Below are positions 36,762 to 58,679 of a DNA stretch of 64,000 nucleotides, in pieces. Each line of letters starts with the position of its first letter. Positions within the stretch are counted from its first letter, which is position 1. A program made the translations under genes and the position numbers. Under the pieces are notes generated by a model. That model was given only the letters and a program-made list of their open reading frames with translations, did no database searches and was not told the origin of the DNA. The stretch is from Ecytonucleospora hepatopenaei (Eukaryota; Microsporidia; Enterocytozoonidae): positions 744,001 to 808,000 of the forward strand of contig JAPMUG010000001.1 in the NCBI GenBank assembly GCA_026692725.1, read 5' to 3'.

Positions 36762-38012
36762 TTATTTAGTGCTGTCTAAAATATCAGAAGGTTTAGAATT
36801 TTGTTCATAAAAAAATAACTCTTTGTCTAAATTTAAAATTGGCTCAAATAATTCCCATGCTGCTTTAACATCGTATTCCATTGCAAGTGCTGGATTGTCA
36901 TTATAGACGAGATTATTAAAGACATATCCATAATCTGAATAACCATTAAAAAATCTTTCTAACATATTTTCTATATGTGAACAAGATACAATCTCTCTTT
37001 TAGTTGTTCCTCCGACTGCTTCAATGTCAATTGAAATGCCTTCATCTTTCAAAAAACTGTAAGAAACTGATATCTTTTTTGGTAAAATATCAACCTCAAG
37101 ATTTATAATCTGCATAAATTCAACCGCAAATGCTTGATTAATATTTAAAACAACTTTTGACTCTTTTTTGTGCAAGCCCTTTCCTGCAATAAAATTGCAA
37201 GGAATGTCTTTAAACTCACCGTCTTTGAATTTTAAGGTAAAATAAGCAAAAGTTTCTGTTTTTGAATCAGAAATTGCATAATTTTTATATTGTCCTTTTA
37301 CTAAACTTAACGGAACAATACTCAAATTTTTAATTACATTTGACCTTGCTTTAGAAAGGGATTCACCATTTGTTTCATCACCTTTGGATAAAACTATTGC
37401 CAACATTTCAATCATGTGGTTTTGCATAACATCTTTTACTGTTCCATTTTTATCAAAATTTGAAATACCATCAGCTAATAAAGTTTCAGTAAACACGACA
37501 TCAATGCTTTCAATAAAAACATTTCTTATCATTTTGTCAAAAACATCATTTTGTTTTCTTAAGTATGGAAAAACAAGCGACAAAGGTTTTGTAAGATAAT
37601 GGTCTATAAAAACACATTTATCAGTGATTTTCAGTTTTTGAAAATCTTTCAAATTTGAGCCAAAAGGCTTTTCAAGTGCAATTTTTTTGTGTTTAATAAG
37701 CTTGGTAGATGCGAGTAATGTATTGTATACATGTGTTGGAGTAGCAAAATATAATATAGTATCAGCATTACAAACATTATCCAATTGAGAAACATCTTGG
37801 TAACTGCCTCTGACATAGCTAACCTGGTTTAAAAAGTCTTCTGTATAATCTGAATGAAATTCAAGAAGTTTTTGTTTGTAAGTTTTAGATAAATCACTGC
37901 GACCATATAAAATTATATTTAAATCCTTGTTTCTAAGCTTAAATAATTCATAAACTAGTTTAAGCATAGCTAGGTTGCCACTTCCTCCAAATATTACAAT
38001 GTTTTTAGTCAT
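36762..38012 (-). CDS. ZWF1: Glucose-6-phosphate 1-dehydrogenase
   Basis: A 416-aa first enzyme of the oxidative pentose phosphate pathway, making NADPH. The Rossmann motif is FGGSGNLAMLKL near residues 8-19 (GASGDLA in most species). ALEKPFG near 113-119 and IDHYLTKP (active-site RIDHYLGK variant) near 137-144 follow. FDKNGTVKDVMQNHMIEMLAIV holds the conserved D-x-x-QNH. It is about 90 residues shorter than yeast Zwf1 (505 aa), and the Arg of the catalytic motif is replaced (FIDHYL). Microsporidia need this pathway since they lack other NADPH sources. Confidence 0.9.
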   Translation of the reverse strand: MTKNIVIFGGSGNLAMLKLVYELFKLRNKDLNIILYGRSDLSKTYKQKLLEFHSDYTEDFLNQVSYVRGSYQDVSQLDNVCNADTILYFATPTHVYNTLLASTKLIKHKKIALEKPFGSNLKDFQKLKITDKCVFIDHYLTKPLSLVFPYLRKQNDVFDKMIRNVFIESIDVVFTETLLADGISNFDKNGTVKDVMQNHMIEMLAIVLSKGDETNGESLSKARSNVIKNLSIVPLSLVKGQYKNYAISDSKTETFAYFTLKFKDGEFKDIPCNFIAGKGLHKKESKVVLNINQAFAVEFMQIINLEVDILPKKISVSYSFLKDEGISIDIEAVGGTTKREIVSCSHIENMLERFFNGYSDYGYVFNNLVYNDNPALAMEYDVKAAWELFEPILNLDKELFFYEQNSKPSDILDSTK

Positions 38013-38855: not shown

Positions 38856-39608
38856 TCATTTTTTAGTTGAGTCTAAAAAAATATCAGTAAAACAACAAAA
38901 CATTACTTGTTCAGTTTTATTTTTATAAATATCTTCAGGATGTACTACTTTTTTAATATCTTTAAAACATATTTTGTTGTTAAAATGTTTACAATTAACC
39001 ACAATTGTCTCATATTCGCCACCCTCTCCGCAAAAATTCAAATCCCACTTTGTTTTTACTGTTATCAAATATGCATAAAGTTCTGAAATATCCTTGCCTA
39101 ATAAATAATCAGGTAATAAAGGAGAAGCTATTTTAACAATAACCGCATTGATTCCATAATCAATCATTTCTTTAAGCAATTCTTTTTGTTCATGCTTCCA
39201 TAGAGGAGATAAACTCAATAGATTTAGTCTTTTTGCAATATTTCCTACTCTGTTTTTTTGATAAGTTGATTCTATTGCACCAGAACATATTGCTTCACCA
39301 CCATATTCTTCAAATGCGGATTTAACGGCGGTAAATAAATCTTCAACTTCATCATACTCACATGCTTCATATTCTAAATTTTGATTTTTTGCGTAGCATT
39401 TGGTTTCTCTGATGACAAACGGAATGTCTAACACCTTTTGAATAAAATCAATAAATTCACGTCCAACTGTCTGGAACATATATGAATCAACATAATTTGA
39501 TTTGTTATGCATGTAAACACAAGCAACAATATGATGTCCTTCATCCTTTAATTTACAAAGAGTGTATATCGAATCTTTTCCACCACTTATTAGTGCTATT
39601 ACTTTCAT
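38856..39608 (-). CDS. DPH6: Diphthine-ammonia ligase (Dph6)
   Basis: A 250-aa ATP pyrophosphatase (adenine nucleotide alpha hydrolase fold) that performs the last amidation step of diphthamide on eEF2. It has the PP-loop SGGKDSIYT at residues 8-16, the family block AICSGAIESTYQKNRV (GAI.S.YQ..RV.....RL.L....PLW), PLWKHEQKELLKEMI, and the terminal EGGEYET near 195. Length is that of the bare catalytic domain; yeast Dph6 carries two additional RidA-like domains which are missing here. Confidence 0.92.
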   Translation of the reverse strand: MKVIALISGGKDSIYTLCKLKDEGHHIVACVYMHNKSNYVDSYMFQTVGREFIDFIQKVLDIPFVIRETKCYAKNQNLEYEACEYDEVEDLFTAVKSAFEEYGGEAICSGAIESTYQKNRVGNIAKRLNLLSLSPLWKHEQKELLKEMIDYGINAVIVKIASPLLPDYLLGKDISELYAYLITVKTKWDLNFCGEGGEYETIVVNCKHFNNKICFKDIKKVVHPEDIYKNKTEQVMFCCFTDIFLDSTKK

Positions 39609-45596: not shown

Positions 45597-46229
45597 TCAC
45601 AATAAACCCGTAATCTTTTTATCAACAAGACCACAGTCTGTTATGACAACAGTATACAAAGGTTCTGCAGTTTGTTTTAAGTAAATACCCCTATCAAAGC
45701 TTTTTAAAAAATCAGAAACATATTCTTTTCTTATTTTTCCAAAAACAACGTGTTTTCCATCTAACCACGTTGTTTTCTTGAATGTAATGAAGAACTGTGA
45801 ACCGTTTGTATTTGGACCACTATTTGCCATGCTTAAAAGCCCTGCTTCAGAATGCTTATGCTTAAAATTTTCATCATCAAACTTTTCTCCATATATACTT
45901 ATACCACCTGTTCCATTTCCTTTAGTAAAATCACCACCTTGCATCATAAAATCATCAATTATGCGATGAAATGTGCTGTTTTTATAAGTAACATTCTTGT
46001 TTTCAGACAATCCTTCACATAACATTGCAAAATTTAAACAAGTTTTTGGAGTTTCATTCCAAAACAATTCAAAGACAAAGTTCTTTTTAATCCTCACGTC
46101 CTTTTTATCTGTATATTCAATTGTCATAAAAGCATCCTTATTGAAATATTTTTCTTTTATTTCCTTTTTCGCAAATAAATTTAAATCAAAAGGTTGAAAT
46201 AAAAAAGAAGCATTGTTAATAGATACCAT
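45597..46229 (-). CDS. Cyclophilin-type peptidyl-prolyl isomerase
   Basis: 210 aa. The cyclophilin fold follows a 30-residue N-terminal extension: [23 protein letters not shown] contains the catalytic Arg, [14 protein letters not shown] follows, and [14 protein letters not shown] carries the Trp that confers cyclosporin sensitivity. It accelerates proline isomerisation in folding. The extension ([23 protein letters not shown]) is not a signal peptide, so a cytosolic or nuclear site is likely. Confidence 0.9.
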
Positions 46230-46921: not shown

Positions 46922-47638
46922 ATGTCAAAGGTAATAAGAAAGTTTAGACAACAGAAAAAGAAAGAACGTTCAAACGTTAAGAAACTTGATCTTAGCTATC
47001 CCAAAGTAAAAGAAACAACTGAAATGACATTGTTAGAGTTAAAGCATCAAAGAGGAAAAGGTGCACCAGTTGCCATTGTTGAAATAGAAGGAAAGGCTTA
47101 TAACATATGTGCAACAGAAGGAACTTCCGTAGGTCAAAAGTTCACAATTGGAAATGAAGGTATCGTCAAGGAGGGCAATATTATGCAACTTAAAAATATT
47201 CCGGAAGGATATGCAGTACATTCTGTTGAATATGAGCAGAATGATGGTGGAAATGTTGCTATGACAGCAGGATGTTATTGTTCAATTGAAAACCATAGGA
47301 AAGAAAATGGGCAAACTGTACTTAAAATGCCTTCAGGTAAAAAGATTGTTTTTCCAAACACAGTTAGAGCTATTGTTGGAGTTGTTTCAGGGGCAGGTAT
47401 TTGCGAAAAGCCTTTGCTTAAGGCAGGAACAACGCATTATTTGAAGAGAAGCAGAGGTCAGTTGTTCCCAAGAGTAAGAGGTGTTGCAATGAATCCAGTG
47501 GATCACGGACACGGAGGAGGAAACCACCAGCACATTGGTTTTTCATCAACTGTTTCTAAGAGAGCCCCATTAGCACAGCAGGTTGGATTGGTTGGTGCAA
47601 GATCAACAGGTAGAAAAACAGGTAATAAGGCAAAGTAA
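46922..47638 (+). CDS. RPL2: 60S ribosomal protein uL2 (L8)
   Basis: A 238-aa protein at the peptidyl-transferase region. The uL2 signature is GRKTGNKAK at the C-terminus with GVAMNPVDHGHGGGNHQHIG near residues 188-208; the His of that loop is the modified or tRNA-proximal residue in fungi. APVAIVEI and VGxxLPLKNIPEG-like IMQLKNIPEGYAVHSVE are conserved. The N-terminus is shorter than in yeast (254 aa). AACCCTG lies 17-20 nt before the ATG. Confidence 0.95.
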   Translation: MSKVIRKFRQQKKKERSNVKKLDLSYPKVKETTEMTLLELKHQRGKGAPVAIVEIEGKAYNICATEGTSVGQKFTIGNEGIVKEGNIMQLKNIPEGYAVHSVEYEQNDGGNVAMTAGCYCSIENHRKENGQTVLKMPSGKKIVFPNTVRAIVGVVSGAGICEKPLLKAGTTHYLKRSRGQLFPRVRGVAMNPVDHGHGGGNHQHIGFSSTVSKRAPLAQQVGLVGARSTGRKTGNKAK

Positions 47639-51918: not shown

Positions 51919-52138
51919 ACCTTTACTTATTATTTTCTTTAAATATTTTTTATTGTACTAAAACATTTTTTAGACATTCTTAATGTTCTAAATTATATTT
52001 AAAAGGTGTTTTAAAATTTATTTTTCAACATATTTTTTGCCCTAAAAGTTAGTGAAGTTTAGTTGAGTTTTATTTTTAGTTTAGTTTTTGTCATTAATAT
52101 TTAGTTTATTAGTTAAATATTTTACTGCTATAATTCAA

Positions 52139-52535
52139 ATGGATTCTTTTGTAATTCAGTGCAATAGTTGTAACAATATAGTTGGTGATTCAAATGCACT
52201 TGTAAATGAATTTGAAGATTTTTTTTATACTTAAAACTATAAATGACACTATAAAAATAAAAATAGACAAGGATAACATAAAAACCAAAAAAGCAATTGA
52301 AATAGATGATGCAGTTACTAATAATTTATCATGTGAGTGTCTTCTGAATGTTGGTGTATATTTAAAAACAGCACCATCAGAATTAAATGGTTGTTCAGGT
52401 TGTTTTATAATTATAAAAAAGTTTACACATACATATTCTCTTAATAAAATGCATGAAAATAAAAAAATAAAAACAATAAGTGATTTACAAAAAGATGTAG
52501 AAAATATAAAAAATGTATTGTCAAAAATATTGTAG
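52139..52535 (+). pseudogene. Mis18-like (Yippee/Mis18 zinc domain) gene, one frameshift at T8
   Basis: The first frame (52139-52234, 31 codons) begins MDSFVIQCNSCNNIVGDS, the first zinc-ribbon half of the Mis18 domain (FQCRxCxxIVGDS). After a T8 run at 52219-52226 the next frame carries the second half: CECLLNVGVYLKT (compare C..C...LG..Y), then a helix ending VENIKNVLSKIL, like the Mis18 C-terminal coil. Taking out one T would unite them. Mis18 recruits CENP-A loading factors to centromeres. The break may be a homopolymer error in the assembly, a true pseudogene, or a frameshift site; the good match on both sides suggests recent or no decay. Confidence 0.6.
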
Positions 52536-52702
52536 ATTAATAAAATATATTCTTTTTACTAATTTTTTAATCCTAATATTTTACAATACTATTTTTATAA
52601 TAAGTGTTTGAATTAAAACTATAAAAAACAAACATCTAATACATATTCAAGTATTGAAGTATTTAATATTCAACCATATATTTTTATATTAATATAGAGA
52701 TA

Positions 52703-53530
52703 ATGGAAAATAATTTTTTAAATTTAAATAATTTTATTGCACCTGAGTGGGTTTTAAAATTACTTGAAAAAGGAAAAACAGCAAATAATATTCCACATTT
52801 ACTTTTATATGGCCCACCTGGTACGGGAAAAACAACATTTGCAAAATTATTAACAAAGGAAAAGGAGTGTTTAATGCTTAATGCAAGCGACGAAAGAGGA
52901 ATTTCAACAATAAGGAATAAAGTAAAAGTGTTTGCACAGTTTAATAAGCAAAAGTTTATAGTTCTCGATGAGTGTGAAAATTTAACCAAAGACAGTCAAA
53001 CATGTTTAAGGAGAATTTTAGAAGATTACAATTCTACAACATTTATTTTTATAACAAATTATTTTAGTAAGATAATTGATCCTATAAAGTCAAGAACACT
53101 TAAAATACGTTTTAAAAGCAATTTAAGTGACATTGTAAATAATTTAGAAAGAGAGAATGGTGTTACTGGAGATGAGCTAAAGAAAATATTAATAGAAACA
53201 GAAGGTGACATAAGAAAAACAAAATATATTATGCATGGATTGAGTGTGGTAAAAATGAATAAAAATGTTAAATTAGAAAGCAGCAAAATAATTGAATATT
53301 TTACTGGTGCATTTATTTATGATAAAAACAAAACATATGTAGAAAATGTAGAAGAAAATCAATTTAATTCTGTACCAGCTGTTAACTGTATAAAATATTT
53401 GGTAAAAAGAAATGAATCATATGAAAATGCAATTATTTTAGGGGAGTTAGAGAGAATGGCATTAAATGGCGTACCTGAAGAAATAATATATGAAAGAATA
53501 AAAAACATTACAAATATTAGTTTAGATTAA
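52703..53530 (+). CDS. RFC2: Replication factor C small subunit (RFC2-type)
   Basis: 275 aa. Walker A is GPPGTGKTT near 38-46, LNASDERGIS follows (RFC box), Walker B is LDECENL (DExE instead of DEAD), and the sensor/Arg-finger region is ITNYFSKIIDPIKSRT (SRC motif altered to SRT). LNASDERGISTIRNKVK and IIDP(I/L)xSR are close to yeast Rfc2 (human RFC4). It loads PCNA at primer junctions. It is reduced at the C-terminus (yeast 353 aa), retaining part of the collar domain. Confidence 0.85.
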   Translation: MENNFLNLNNFIAPEWVLKLLEKGKTANNIPHLLLYGPPGTGKTTFAKLLTKEKECLMLNASDERGISTIRNKVKVFAQFNKQKFIVLDECENLTKDSQTCLRRILEDYNSTTFIFITNYFSKIIDPIKSRTLKIRFKSNLSDIVNNLERENGVTGDELKKILIETEGDIRKTKYIMHGLSVVKMNKNVKLESSKIIEYFTGAFIYDKNKTYVENVEENQFNSVPAVNCIKYLVKRNESYENAIILGELERMALNGVPEEIIYERIKNITNISLD

Positions 53531-53627
53531 TCATTATAAAATATATAACTAATTTATTATACAATACTTTATAATAATATACTTAATATTATATTTATTA
53601 CTGTATATTAATAAACTATATTTATTA

Positions 53628-54590
53628 CTATATATTAATTAATAATGTTATACATAAAATAATAAAAAATAAATTATTTGATTTGTTACTATTATCCTTT
53701 ACATTACTTTCTGTACTTTCATCACTACTATTTTTATGCAATTTAAGGTGCAAATTATTAAAAGATTCATCTGTATCATCACTTATACTGATATCATTAT
53801 TACTATTATTGCTATCATTTGTAGTATTATTTAATTTAAATGTTGTATTTTCTTTTACTTTTAGTAATGCATCTTCATTAGTAATATAAAATTCAAAAGA
53901 AAATGTTTTCCCTATTTTGTTTAATTGTTCAATGTACAAACATAAGACATTAAAACTGACTGATTGATCATTTTTACTATTGTATAATTTTAAAGAATCC
54001 ACTGTAATATCATCAACTATTATATCACTAACTTTTTTAATTTCATTTTTACTATTTGTAACTATCTTATACAATTCCTGTCCTTTTAAATTAATAGAAG
54101 TGTAGAATAAATCATTTTTACATGTAAGTGGTATTTTATTAATTTCTTTATATTCTAATAATTCTTTATTTTTTATGTTATATTTATATTTATCAGAAGA
54201 TACATGAAAAGAATTATTAGAAATTAAATATATAACATTATTTGTATTTGTAAATTTACTTGTATTATTATTTGTATTTGTATTTCTGTCTTGATAAGGA
54301 ATAGAAATATTAGCTTCCTTTATATTTATTTTAGTATTTGTTATAGTATTTACTTTTTGATTATCTATCAATACTTCTGTATTTTTATTCAGGTAAAACT
54401 CATAACTATAAAAATATTTTTTATATTTAGATAATTCCTTACTGTATAAAATAAAAACATTTCTATTATAATAAAATGGTATATTTATAGTAACATATGC
54501 TTTTATTAGAGTATTTGGTTTTACTGTTATAGAAGTACCTTTTTTAATTAACATTTCACATAATACTATTATTTTATGAATAAATAACAT
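53628..54590 (-). CDS. Hypothetical membrane or GPI-type protein, 320 aa
   Basis: Not recognised. A hydrophobic N-terminus (LFIHKIIVLCEMLI, a possible signal) and a hydrophobic C-terminal tail (LFFIILCITLLINI) with no following basic residues suggest a GPI or tail anchor. The region in front of the tail is Asn/Ser/Asp-rich and disordered (about 245-300). The body is Lys/Asn/Ile-rich with beta-strand character. Several NT and NTNN runs occur (about residue 100), in step with the Asn-Thr tract of the gene at 56261. Confidence 0.55.
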   Translation of the reverse strand: MLFIHKIIVLCEMLIKKGTSITVKPNTLIKAYVTINIPFYYNRNVFILYSKELSKYKKYFYSYEFYLNKNTEVLIDNQKVNTITNTKINIKEANISIPYQDRNTNTNNNTSKFTNTNNVIYLISNNSFHVSSDKYKYNIKNKELLEYKEINKIPLTCKNDLFYTSINLKGQELYKIVTNSKNEIKKVSDIIVDDITVDSLKLYNSKNDQSVSFNVLCLYIEQLNKIGKTFSFEFYITNEDALLKVKENTTFKLNNTTNDSNNSNNDISISDDTDESFNNLHLKLHKNSSDESTESNVKDNSNKSNNLFFIILCITLLINI

Positions 54591-54905
54591 ATTACAATAT
54601 TAAATACAATTAATTTAATAAACTTTTATTTATTTTTTGTAATATAAAACATATAAACAACACAAATAGTATATAATGTATTTTATATAAATATATATTG
54701 ATTTTAAATTAAAAAATATTCTAATCTTTTTAAAAAAATAATTTATCCCCTATAAAAAGATATTGATAAAATTATTTAGATATAGATAAAAGAATATTGA
54801 TAAAATTATTTAGATATAGATAAAAAATATAGATATAATTATTTAGACATATATATTTATTCAAATATAATTATTTAGATAAAAAGATATTTAAAATATT
54901 TTCAA
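54591..54905. other. A+T spacer with imperfect tandem units
   Basis: About 315 bp between two divergent accessory genes. Bases 54765-54880 hold imperfect copies of a unit containing GATAAAATTATTTAGATATAG (about 30-36 bp). Confidence 0.5.
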
Positions 54906-55994
54906 ATGTCATCTAAAATTGATCTTAAAAATAACAATAAAAAATTTAACAATATTAATGAAAATAAAAAAAAGTGGAAATTATTAATATTCTTTTTAGC
55001 AGTTCTAGTAATTGGTGGTATCACATTTTTATGTATCTTTTTTATAAAAAAGCATAAGAAGAAAGAAGAAACAGGTAAAGTTGATGAAAAAGTAAAAGAA
55101 AAATACAAAGGAGATAAAATAGATAAATATAATAAAGATAAGCTTAAAGACAATTTTTTAGCAGATGCATTAGATTATGATAAAACACATAATACAGGTA
55201 CAGTTAAATCTATAATCATCGATGTTATTACAAATAAAAGAAATATTTTGTATAAAAAAAGACCATTTAATAGGGTAACACAGTCACATGATTCAATATT
55301 TTCACTTTTTGATTTATTACACAATACAGGTGAAGAAGTAGCAATAGTAGCAGCAGCCAATGCCATTTATGTAGGTGGTGGATATACTGTTTTTAGGTCA
55401 TGTAGAGATGGAAAAGGAACACAAGAAGAAGCATTAATGGGTGTAGTACATAAATTATCAGAGGCAAATTTAACATTAGCAATAAAAGACAGAAATGGTG
55501 AATATTACAAAGATAATAAAGGTAGAATAAAATACAATAATGAAAAATTAAAAGATAAAATATGGCTATCAGAAAAGTTAGGATTGAAAGTACCATTGGA
55601 TACTGTAATGGGGTATAGGTACAATAGTAGAAATTGTAAATTTCTAAGTGATTATATTTTATTATGTTATTATGATAAAAAGTTTAAAATCAAGGAATAT
55701 AAAGAAACATCTAAAAAAGTAAGTGTATACTCAATGGCAGCATTTGATGCAAGAAATGCTAAACATGTAGATTATGATAGATTATACACTGATGTAAACA
55801 ATAAGCTTATAACATGTTTGTTAGATGCAGAAAAGAAGAGAATAAAACATGTAGTTTTGACAGTACCAGGAGCAGGTGTGTTTGCAAATGGAGATAAAAA
55901 ATATTTAGAAACAGTAAAAAGAGCAGCTAAAAATGCAGTTGAGAATTATGGAGGATCATTTAGTAATTTAGTGGTATCACCCAAAATTGACTGA
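54906..55994 (+). CDS. Membrane-anchored PARG/MavL-like macrodomain protein
   Basis: 362 aa. A cytosolic basic N-terminus (1-24) is followed by one transmembrane segment (about 25-47) and a Lys-rich stalk (48-80); residues 98-360 resemble a macrodomain of the poly(ADP-ribose) glycohydrolase type. Key features are VAIVAAANAIYVGGG (AAN near 150-152, GGG 157-159), then QEE at 173-175 (PARG catalytic signature GGG-x(n)-QEE, here n=13, longer than the usual 6-8), VYSMAAFDARN near 274-284, and VLTVPGAGVFANGD near 317-330 (the G-x-G-x-F phosphate-binding loop). A resemblance to DUF4804, which includes the Legionella ADP-ribosyl hydrolase MavL, is possible. Enzymatic activity is inferred from motifs only. 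The topology would place the domain outside the cytosol or in the host interface. Confidence 0.6.
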   Translation: MSSKIDLKNNNKKFNNINENKKKWKLLIFFLAVLVIGGITFLCIFFIKKHKKKEETGKVDEKVKEKYKGDKIDKYNKDKLKDNFLADALDYDKTHNTGTVKSIIIDVITNKRNILYKKRPFNRVTQSHDSIFSLFDLLHNTGEEVAIVAAANAIYVGGGYTVFRSCRDGKGTQEEALMGVVHKLSEANLTLAIKDRNGEYYKDNKGRIKYNNEKLKDKIWLSEKLGLKVPLDTVMGYRYNSRNCKFLSDYILLCYYDKKFKIKEYKETSKKVSVYSMAAFDARNAKHVDYDRLYTDVNNKLITCLLDAEKKRIKHVVLTVPGAGVFANGDKKYLETVKRAAKNAVENYGGSFSNLVVSPKID

Positions 55995-56260
55995 ATAAAT
56001 AATACATAACATTAAATACATATTAAATAATAAAATATTACATTTAATAAATATTGTTTTATATATTTAATATATTTTATCATTAAATATAGTTTTTATA
56101 TATTTAATTATTTAATATATTTTATTATTTATTAACCCTTAACATAGTTATATAAATTTAATAACATTATTCTAATTTTATTATATATAACTCTTTAATA
56201 GAATTATTAATAATTAATATATAATTATAAATATATTATAACAATATTAATATTTTTATA

Positions 56261-57859
56261 ATGAATACCAATAATAAATATAATAATATTACATGTAATA
56301 CTGAATCAATTTCTATATCAAAATATGAACAAAAACTAATTGATGAATGTACATGTCTTACTGAGAATATAATAATGTCATATATAAAAGTATTACTAAA
56401 AGATAGAAATATAAATATATTAACAATGGATGAGTTTATTAAGGTAGTAGAATATAAAATAAATAAAAAGAAAAATAACAATATATATAACAATAATATA
56501 AATATCAATATCAATATAAATTATCCTATTATAATAGTTTATAAATCATGTTTAGATTATTCATTAGTTTATTATGATTTAAAAACAATATACACGTATA
56601 GCAAACCAGAAATATATGCAAAGAATGATTATAGAGAAGATTCAGATTTAGATACAGATTATTATGACACATATTTTGATGATATAAATACATATACATA
56701 TAATACTAATACTAATACTAATACTAATACTAATACTAATACTAATACTAATACTAATACTAATACTAATACTAATACTAATACTAATACTAATACTAAT
56801 ACTAATACTAATACTAATACTAATACTAATACTAATACTAATACTAATACTAATACTAATACTAATACTAATACTAATACTAATACTAATACTAATACTA
56901 ATACTAATACTAATACTAATACTAATACTAATACTAATACTAATACTAATACTAATACTAATACTAATACTAATACTAATACTAATACTAATACTAATAC
57001 TAATACTAATACTAATACTAATACTAATACTAATACTAATACTAATACTAATACTAATACTAATACTAATACTAATACTAATACTAATACTAATACTAAT
57101 ACTAATACTAATACTAATACTAATACTAATACTAATACTAATACTAATACTAATACTAATACTAATACTAATACTAATACTAATACTAATACTAATACTA
57201 ATACTAATACTAATACTAATACTAATACTAATACTAATACTAATACTAATACTAATACTAATACTAATACTAATACTAATACTAATACTAATACTAATAC
57301 TAATACTAATCAATTTACTGTTAATAATGTTATTGATTTAACTAATGAAAGTATAACTTCAATTAGACAATTAGTTATGAGTGGAATAGATGTAACTGTT
57401 AGAATATTAGAAATAGGTGATTTTTTAGTTCATAGCATAGGTGGGAGTAGATTTCAAATAAGATGTATATCAAGAACAAGTGGTAATGTTATTATAGAAC
57501 AAATGAATTTATATATGATATTAACAAATAATACTAATAATACTAATAGTAATACTAATAGTAATAATACTAATTTAAATGTACATGATGTTAAAAGGAA
57601 TTTATTAAAAGGTGATAATCTTTTTAATCATATTGATTATTATATAAAGAAAATATATTATGATAAAAGTAATATGAACATATTGCAAAATAAAACAAAA
57701 ATATGTAGCAATGAAGATTTAAACAAAGAAAGCTTTTGTATTTGTATGCTTTTAGAATCAATATTTTTTAAGGAAAAGACAAAAGAAATATTCATAAACC
57801 TTGATATAGAAAGTTATTCAAAGAAAATAAAGAAAATGTTATATGAATTTTATGAATAA
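56261..57859 (+). CDS. Protein with a 203-residue (Asn-Thr) repeat tract
   Basis: 532 aa. Residues 1-147 are ordinary Asn/Tyr/Lys-rich sequence. Residues 148-350 are a perfect Asn-Thr dipeptide repeat encoded by AATACT hexamers (see the repeat entry). Residues 351-532 resume a globular-looking sequence with VIDLTNESITSIRQLVMSGIDVTVRILEIGDFLVHSIGG, then shorter NTNS runs near 425-440. No signal peptide. The frame stays open through the entire repeat, and C-terminal codons are clean, so the gene is likely expressed. Family not recognised. Confidence 0.6.
   Translation: MNTNNKYNNITCNTESISISKYEQKLIDECTCLTENIIMSYIKVLLKDRNINILTMDEFIKVVEYKINKKKNNNIYNNNININININYPIIIVYKSCLDYSLVYYDLKTIYTYSKPEIYAKNDYREDSDLDTDYYDTYFDDINTYTYNTNTNTNTNTNTNTNTNTNTNTNTNTNTNTNTNTNTNTNTNTNTNTNTNTNTNTNTNTNTNTNTNTNTNTNTNTNTNTNTNTNTNTNTNTNTNTNTNTNTNTNTNTNTNTNTNTNTNTNTNTNTNTNTNTNTNTNTNTNTNTNTNTNTNTNTNTNTNTNTNTNTNTNTNTNTNTNTNTNTNTNTNTNTNTNTNTNTNTNTNTNQFTVNNVIDLTNESITSIRQLVMSGIDVTVRILEIGDFLVHSIGGSRFQIRCISRTSGNVIIEQMNLYMILTNNTNNTNSNTNSNNTNLNVHDVKRNLLKGDNLFNHIDYYIKKIYYDKSNMNILQNKTKICSNEDLNKESFCICMLLESIFFKEKTKEIFINLDIESYSKKIKKMLYEFYE
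56702..57310 (+). repeat. Perfect AATACT hexanucleotide array, about 101.5 copies
   Basis: Uninterrupted for 609 bp with no base change visible. In-frame on the + strand it encodes (Asn-Thr)n; read on the minus strand it gives an equally long open frame of alternating Ile-Ser. Perfect homogeneity points to recent expansion or to a collapsed or over-extended assembly. Confidence 0.95.
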
Positions 57860-58024
57860 ACTGATACATGCAATTTAAACATTCTATAAATATTATAAAT
57901 TTTATTAGATTATATAAATGTTATTTACTTTTATATGTTAACAATTTTATAAACTTTATTAGATTATATTAAACTTTATTAGATTATATATGTGAATAAT
58001 TTATATTTTAATATTTTGTTAAAC

Positions 58025-58465
58025 ATGAATATATTCAAATTTTATTTAGGTAAAACATGATTATGATGGGTTAAAAAGTACAAGATTATTTATAAGGGCT
58101 ATATTATACTACACATTAAATTTAAAGATAAAAAGGGAAGACTTTGTCGTAATTACAGTAGAAGGTAAAAAAGTAATAAATGAAAAGGAAAAGTTCATAT
58201 TGGAATTAAAATATAAATCCAAAGAATATGGTGGTATAGATGGATTTTACAAGAGAAAAGACAAATATGGAAATTGGCTATTTCAACTCAAATTGCACAA
58301 AGTGATCCAAGAAAGGTATTTCCTTTTTTTAGTTTAGTTAGTTTTAGAGCCATTTTTATTTTTAAAATAAGTTGTGAAACCAAATACAATGCGATAAACA
58401 ATAATGGACTAAAAAATATTGGAAAGAAAATAATAAAAAAACAATTATTTTTAATAGAACACTAA
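58025..58465 (+). pseudogene. Broken ORF, probably one decayed gene
   Basis: Three frame segments read in order. ATG at 58025 begins MNIFKFYLG; from 58050 an open frame continues for 95 codons (KREDFVVITVEGKKVINEKE in the middle), ending at TAG 58335. Beyond a T7 run (58324-58330) the other frame stays open to 58465. One missing T there would continue the reading frame. Another lesion lies near 58045. The protein is not recognised. Separated from the Asn-Thr gene by 165 bp of A+T repeats (AAACTTTATTAGATTATAT units). Confidence 0.5.
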
Positions 58466-58679
58466 AAATGTCTAGTTATATTTTAGAATGGGTTGTTTTG
58501 ATTCAAATTCACCTAAACAACTGATTTAGACAAAAAAATTTTATAATAGTGTCATTTGGTTTAAATTGAAAATATTTTAATAAAAACTTAAAATTCATGT
58601 AATATTATGTTTAAGATAAAAATAGATATTAGTTATAAAGCGCCTAATTTAAAATAAACTTTAACAATATCAATATCAA

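What the first reader, a model, noticed from the sequence alone, without database searches (positions are those of the whole stretch)
54906..55994. Membrane-anchored PARG/MavL-like macrodomain in a microsporidian accessory region
The ORF carries AAN, GGG, QEE and a PGAGVFANG loop in the right order for a poly(ADP-ribose)glycohydrolase-type macrodomain, behind a single transmembrane segment and a basic stalk. The GGG-to-QEE distance (13) is longer than in canonical bacterial PARG. It lies among orphan secreted or membrane proteins, away from core genes. Obligate intracellular parasites could use such an enzyme to remove ADP-ribose marks placed by the host. A DUF4804/MavL kinship is possible.
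Basis: partly seen in the sequence, partly recalled or inferred. Interest (0 to 1): 0.85.

Follow-up and report, generated by a model that had tools for sequence, protein, structure and literature searches.

The report
Membrane-anchored PARG-like macrodomain in shrimp microsporidian
A shrimp parasite with a very small genome carries, near a chromosome end, a membrane-anchored protein whose body looks like a distant relative of the enzymes that strip ADP-ribose marks, which would be an unexpected tool for a microsporidian if it proves active.

Summary
The ORF is real (54906-55994, +, 362 aa). The genome is that of the shrimp microsporidian Ecytonucleospora (Enterocytozoon) hepatopenaei: the only named relative found, EHP00_257, is this genome's own paralogue. 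One transmembrane segment and a basic stalk precede a domain that is best read as a divergent PARG-like macrodomain. A 126-protein PARG profile scores it above all 2000 shuffles. Profile-profile comparison beats 300 column shuffles. A poor AlphaFold2 model from parasite sequences alone still matches macrodomains, bacterial PARGs first by VIA-align. It is not a PF10021 member as defined: under the cut-off, and GGG-to-QEE is 13 residues, against 7 in 120 of 120 PARGs. MavL/DUF4804 signatures are absent. The gene lies 11.5 kb from a telomere-bearing contig end; four broken relatives lie near other telomeres. A second intact paralogue has QEQ and GNG, so it may bind without cutting. 'Away from core genes' is wrong: an RFC subunit lies 1.4 kb upstream. 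Best reading: a type II membrane protein presenting a PARG-like domain to host cytosol. Fold well supported but only predicted; activity, orientation and substrate are inferred.

The parts
54906..55994 (+). ORF of 362 aa, membrane-anchored PARG-like macrodomain protein
   Evidence: intact paralogue
54984..55046 (+). single transmembrane segment, residues 27-47; net charge +5 in the 15 residues before it, +3 in the 15 after it
55047..55172 (+). lysine-rich stalk, residues 48-89
   Evidence: sequence
55173..55991 (+). PARG-like macrodomain, residues 90-362
55353..55361 (+). AAN, residues 150-152, aligned to FAS of bacterial PARGs
55374..55382 (+). GGG, residues 157-159, start of the catalytic loop
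55383..55421 (+). 13-residue GGG-to-QEE loop (7 in 120 of 120 PARGs)
55422..55430 (+). QEE, residues 173-175; E175 aligns to the second Glu of PARGs, the one whose removal kills DrPARG
   Evidence: E112A of DrPARG read
55866..55892 (+). PGAGVFANG, residues 321-329, aligned to GAFGCGVFGN of PARGs (diphosphate-binding loop by analogy)
53628..54590 (-). neighbouring 320-aa orphan ORF, duplicated together with the gene on contig C11 (97% identical)
52703..53530 (+). RFC small-subunit-like AAA+ clamp loader, a core gene

Best explanation
A single-pass type II membrane protein of E. hepatopenaei. The short basic N-terminus stays in the parasite cytosol and the C-terminal PARG-like macrodomain is exposed outside the parasite plasma membrane. 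Enterocytozoon species grow in direct contact with host cytoplasm, so the domain would meet host ADP-ribosylated proteins or poly(ADP-ribose) there. The GGG and PGAGVF loops would hold the diphosphate, and E175 would act in hydrolysis of an O-glycosidic ADP-ribose bond, as in PARGs. The EHP00_257 paralogue (QEQ, GNG) would have lost or reduced cutting and may act as a binder. Shown by computation: ORF, hydrophobic anchor, PARG-like profile match, predicted fold, retained Glu pair, subtelomeric copies. Inferred: orientation, exposure to host, catalysis, poly- versus mono-ADP-ribose, and benefit to the parasite (most likely blunting of host ADP-ribose signalling).
Against: Pfam PF10021 matches at only 13.4 bits, cut-off 23.5, E 0.11. 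The loop is 13 residues, not 6-8. Both models leave the catalytic loop at pLDDT under 50. For the unaided model no Foldseek match reaches E 0.001 (0 of 764), the best PARG is only rank 15 there, and PARGs at VIA-align ranks 3-8 are tied (under 1 Z) with other macrodomains. The PARG-aided model is partly circular. The paralogue EHP00_257 scores 8.2 bits, below the two best shuffles, and lacks the last Glu. The orientation rests on a charge difference of only 2. No expression or localisation data were available. No relative outside E. hepatopenaei was identified, so conservation over species cannot be used.
Confidence: 0.5

Rival explanations
1. A non-catalytic macrodomain adaptor: the family keeps the PARG fold to bind ADP-ribose or a host protein at the parasite surface, in the manner of Toxoplasma MAF1b, a membrane-anchored multi-copy protein at the host interface.
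For: EHP00_257 has QEQ and GNG and is intact. DrPARG E112A loses activity but binds ADP-ribose with nearly unchanged Kd, 2.02 against 1.78 uM (PMC6445106, passages). MAF1B structures are in the Foldseek list at ranks 9 and 38 of 50. MAF1b has a signal peptide, a predicted transmembrane segment and up to 10 paralogues (PMC5444011, passages).
Against: The window copy keeps both Glu and all three Gly, and so do the fragments P0001 and P0002. MAF1B is not in the listed VIA-align top 50 of either model, which excludes nothing. No host partner known.
Confidence: 0.28
2. A scavenging enzyme: host poly(ADP-ribose) is cut to ADP-ribose, which is then a source of adenine nucleotide for a parasite that imports nucleotides and NAD+.
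For: E. bieneusi nucleotide transporters carry NAD+, and genome analysis suggests that species cannot make NAD+ de novo (PMC5923384, passages). This is a related species, not E. hepatopenaei.
Against: No ADP-ribose importer or outward-facing ADP-ribose pyrophosphatase was looked for here. Shares all the uncertainty of the catalytic reading.
Confidence: 0.1
3. A housekeeping PARG acting on the parasite's own ADP-ribosylation.
For: Classical PARGs are cellular enzymes (established knowledge). A PARP could not be excluded: the PF00644 search rang in no control genome either.
Against: Membrane anchor, subtelomeric position, several decayed copies, and no relative identified in other microsporidia at this sensitivity.
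Confidence: 0.07
4. Not a macrodomain; the motifs are a chance resemblance in a fast-evolving orphan.
For: Library matches of the single protein are weak or absent, and the unaided model has pLDDT 46.
Against: Two separate halves align collinearly with PARG, 0 of 2000 and 0 of 300 shuffles do as well, and the unaided model resembles macrodomains and PARGs.
Confidence: 0.05

Closest known systems
Bacterial/microbial-type PARG (PF10021, TIGR02452; T. curvata 3SIH, D. radiodurans 5ZDB)
   Same: Order of AAN/FAS, GGG, QEE, C-terminal GxGxF loop and helices; top VIA-align rows for both models
   Different: 13 instead of 7 residues between GGG and QEE; about 42 extra residues between QEE and the SDY strand (76 against 34 in phage G gp114, counted from Q to D); N-terminal membrane anchor; NFAS and the NP before GGG not kept; under Pfam cut-off
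MavL-like / DUF4804 Arg-specific macrodomains (PF16062)
   Same: Macrodomain fold class (PMC10951314, passages)
   Different: Neither signature motif present; has a GGG...QEE, whose PARG form MavL is reported to lack
Toxoplasma MAF1b
   Same: Membrane-anchored, multi-copy, at the host interface of an intracellular parasite; MAF1B structures listed by Foldseek
   Different: No sequence relation shown; the window copy keeps the PARG Glu pair; MAF1b is at the vacuole membrane, whereas Enterocytozoon has direct cytoplasmic contact
EHP00_257, hypothetical protein of E. hepatopenaei
   Same: Paralogue in the same genome, 45% identical, same domain plan
   Different: GNG and QEQ instead of GGG and QEE; located inside contig C5 (234922-236028) beside an ORF of RNase HII type (named from its sequence, not searched)

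Membership tests
Microbial-type PARG (PF10021) | Pfam gathering score of 23.5 bits | tested here: not met
   13.4 bits, E 0.11; P0001 13.5 bits; P0002 and P0003 no PF10021 row at E<=10
Microbial-type PARG (PF10021) | GGGx(6-8)QEE | tested here: not met
   GGGx(13)QEE in the window protein; 120 of 120 PARGs have x7
Microbial-type PARG (PF10021) | Catalytic Glu pair present | tested here: met
   E174, E175 aligned with the EE of 48 of 48 PARG rows; paralogue EHP00_257 has EQ instead
Microbial-type PARG (PF10021) | PARG macrodomain fold (predicted only) | tested here: met
Microbial-type PARG (PF10021) | QEE placed in the ADP-ribose cleft | tested here: inconclusive
   catalytic-loop region at pLDDT under 50 in both models; coordinates not seen
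Microbial-type PARG (PF10021) | PAR hydrolase activity | not testable with these tools
   needs purified protein
MavL-like (PF16062, DUF4804) | [VIL]xGxGxGx[FWY] and WDxx[SA]xPGN[DE][FY][FWY] | tested here: not met
   absent in all 4 family proteins; motifs from PMC10951314
MavL-like (PF16062, DUF4804) | fold match to MavL structures | tested here: inconclusive
   no row titled MavL in the listed top 50 of either VIA-align table, which excludes nothing
MacroD-type macrodomain | Nx(6)GG[VLI] and G[VIA][YF]G | tested here: not met
   absent in all 4; motifs from PMC10951314
Canonical eukaryotic PARG (PF05028) | Pfam match | tested here: inconclusive
   not among 6 families listed at E<=10, but HMMER filters drop weak matches
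Toxoplasma MAF1 | sequence or close structural relation | tested here: inconclusive
   Foldseek ranks 9 and 38 of 50, E 0.062 and 0.16, unaided model

The most novel reading that the evidence does not exclude
E. hepatopenaei displays on its surface an eraser/reader pair of PARG-like macrodomains, one catalytic subtelomeric copy and one QEQ paralogue, that acts on ADP-ribose marks in the shrimp cell. It would be the first ADP-ribosyl hydrolase effector of a microsporidian known to me, amplified and decaying at several chromosome ends.
Probability: 0.25. Interest if true: 0.85.

Novelty: new variant of a known kind. Interest (0 to 1): 0.62.

Why it matters
Searches of the held open-access library showed no report of a microsporidian macrodomain or PARG: 'microsporidia' with 'macrodomain' gave 1 paper, on bee medicines by title and not opened; with 'ADP-ribose' and 'glycohydrolase' 2 papers and with 'ADP-ribosyl' and 'PARP' 2 papers, of which only PMC3482391 was opened, passages. 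Subscription papers were not searched. Host ADP-ribosylation is an immune and stress signal that viruses and bacteria counter with macrodomains (established knowledge). An enzyme of this kind in a parasite with a strongly reduced genome, growing in direct contact with host cytoplasm and of economic weight in shrimp farming, would make host ADP-ribosylation a testable part of microsporidian infection.

Tried and rejected
Homologues elsewhere: 5.77 billion proteins with the single protein (2 hits among 5844 candidates) and with a 4-row alignment (3 hits; only the 7996 candidates sharing most words were scored) gave three proteins in all, one of them named and from E. hepatopenaei. IMG/VR: 44 pattern stretches, none a relative.

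P0001 (248 aa) and P0002 (274 aa) are not evidence of further full-length genes. They begin with M where the window protein has L115 (codon TTG) and L89 (codon TTA), so at least P0001 looks like a truncated ORF from an alternative start. They show only that the QEE domain occurs in other data.

The family searches of the own genome with PF10021, PF16062 and PF00644 rang nowhere, controls included, and say nothing about absence; PF10021 missed even the window gene. PF01661 rang in 8 of 14 controls and not in this genome.

In one search the 12 rows collapse to six loci plus one weak row (C13:85792-85989, 29% over residues 3-69, E 8.8e-4), which I left out as a likely anchor-region coincidence.

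NCBIfam, PHROGs and PADLOC scans gave nothing relevant. PDB by sequence gave 2 chance matches. Rfam on five contig ends gave 0 matches. A paper search on MAF1 with 'macro domain' gave 0 papers, and the three papers were not opened.

MavL structures do not appear by title in the VIA-align top 50. The idea that the gene is away from core genes was rejected.

Full report
WHAT IS THERE. The ORF at 54906-55994 (+) encodes 362 residues from ATG. Motif positions are AAN 150-152, GGG 157-159, QEE 173-175 and PGAGVFANG 321-329. Between GGG and QEE lie 13 residues. GGGx(6-14)QEE appears in 0 of 200,000 shuffles of residues 98-362. One hydrophobic segment (residues 27-47, mean hydropathy 3.0) is flanked by net charges of +5 before and +3 after, a weak sign that the N-terminus is inside and the domain outside.

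ORGANISM AND PLACE. The window is part of a 3.09-Mb, 13-contig genome. The named relative, EHP00_257 of Ecytonucleospora hepatopenaei, is 100% identical to an ORF of this same genome (C5:234922-236016), so this is that shrimp parasite or something extremely close. The gene ends 11,462 bases before the end of contig C5. That end, like the other four fetched, finishes in TTAG/TTTAG arrays. Four broken relatives lie roughly 10-13 kb from other contig ends: C10 left, C10 right, C11 and C13. They are 98-99% identical in DNA over the matched parts. C11 matches the whole gene; the C10 and C13 copies match only from base 193 on, and C10 right only to base 923. The match table counts 8 to 14 stops inside each. 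A 73-aa ORF that ends shortly after QEE is the same in L002, L004 and L005; L003 was not listed but has the same match table as L002. C11 holds a 96% identical copy of about window 52030-56020, including the neighbouring 320-aa orphan. Two of the six loci are thus intact: the window gene and EHP00_257.

NEIGHBOURS. In fact window 52703-53530 is an RFC small subunit (best PDB match RFC subunit 2, E 3.7e-30), 52206-52535 matches Yippee, 46922-47638 is ribosomal protein L2 and 45597-46229 a cyclophilin. From about 56 kb GC falls to 14-19%.

SEQUENCE EVIDENCE FOR A PARG-LIKE DOMAIN. Pfam alone is below threshold: PF10021 at 13.4 bits (cut-off 23.5), E 0.11, residues 128-178, the AAN-GGG-QEE stretch. 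I collected PARG proteins by a DNA pattern of the PARG loop in IMG/VR (6 loci; all 6 match PF10021) and from a profile search (5768 hits among 7997 scored candidates, best 120 listed, each with PF10021 in the table). A profile of these 126 gave P0001 18.9 bits, the window protein 17.4, P0002 15.2 and P0003 (EHP00_257) 8.2. The best of 2000 shuffles of residues 98-362 reached 11.4, the second 10.9; both exceed P0003. The best other window ORF reached 2.2 (85 stop-to-stop ORFs of 100 aa or more, one of them the gene itself). The two matched stretches are collinear: profile 49-141 to residues 99-205 with GGG and QEE aligned (only 4.3 bits by itself), and profile 147-250 to residues 246-344 with GAFGCGVFGN on PGAGVFANG (13.6 bits). 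hhalign of 4 parasite rows against 6 PARGs: probability 49.5, E 1.7e-4, residues 268-356. Against the 126: local score 40.3, E 6.9e-5, probability 63; global probability 73, with all motifs in register; best of 300 column shuffles (local) 28.9. The local match covers the C-terminal half, which the Pfam match does not, so the two lines are partly independent.

HOW IT DIFFERS FROM KNOWN PARGS. All 120 listed PARGs have exactly 7 residues between GGG and QEE; here there are 13. From Q of QEE to D of SDY there are 76 residues against 34 in phage G gp114 (numbering, pairing as in the global alignment; the MAFFT alignment pairs this stretch otherwise). NFAS is AAAN here, and the NP before GGG is YV. 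Of 51 columns at least 90% conserved among 48 PARGs, the window protein keeps 20 residues and EHP00_257 keeps 18; the two agree with each other at 32 of 51, against 124 of 272 overall (495 of 100,000 random column sets as high). NG86 between the two intact genes: dN 0.50, dS 1.50 over 349 codons, consistent with purifying selection, though the method is crude at this AT bias.

FUNCTION. E175 aligns to the second Glu of QEE. In DrPARG, E112A abolishes PAR hydrolysis but leaves ADP-ribose Kd at 2.02 against 1.78 uM (PMC6445106, passages). EHP00_257 has Q there and GNG for GGG, so that paralogue is more likely a binder than a cutter, and catalysis need not be the ancestral role of the family.

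MAVL. The DUF4804 signatures (PMC10951314, passages) are absent in all four family proteins. Kinship with MavL is not supported.

NOVELTY. The window protein has no named record among the hits, and EHP00_257 is a hypothetical protein. Paper searches showed no microsporidian macrodomain. I call it a new variant of a known kind: PARG-like domain, long catalytic loop, membrane anchor, subtelomeric multi-copy, with a presumed pseudo-enzyme paralogue.

Noticed in passing
L015-L019 (ends of contigs C5, C10 both ends, C11, C13): Telomere arrays of mixed TTAG and TTTAG units (roughly 2:1) with rare TTAGG/TTTAGG, about 0.5-2.3 kb long. TTAG alone is reported for Microsporidia sp. MB (PMC13174016, passages); whether the TTTAG admixture is unusual was not checked further.
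   Followed up: partly
window 52030-56020 and G000:C11:157249-161317: Segmental duplication (96%) between two chromosome ends that carries Yippee, RFC subunit, a 320-aa orphan and the PARG-like gene; the 320-aa ORF stays open in both copies (97%) while the PARG-like copy on C11 is broken.
   Followed up: partly
window 56261-57859: 532-aa ORF with 101 perfect Asn-Thr dipeptides in a row, all coded AATACT, in the AT-rich subtelomere.
   Followed up: no
window 38856-39608: Diphthamide synthase (PF01902, E 7.7e-33); diphthamide of EF2 is a known target of ADP-ribosylating toxins (recalled); no link to the finding shown.
   Followed up: no
window 36762-38012: Glucose-6-phosphate dehydrogenase (PF00479 and PF02781) kept in a lineage recalled to have lost glycolysis.
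   Followed up: no
window 57981-58499: About 500 bases repeated at 95% near four other contig ends (C10 both, C11, C13), a subtelomeric element.
   Followed up: no
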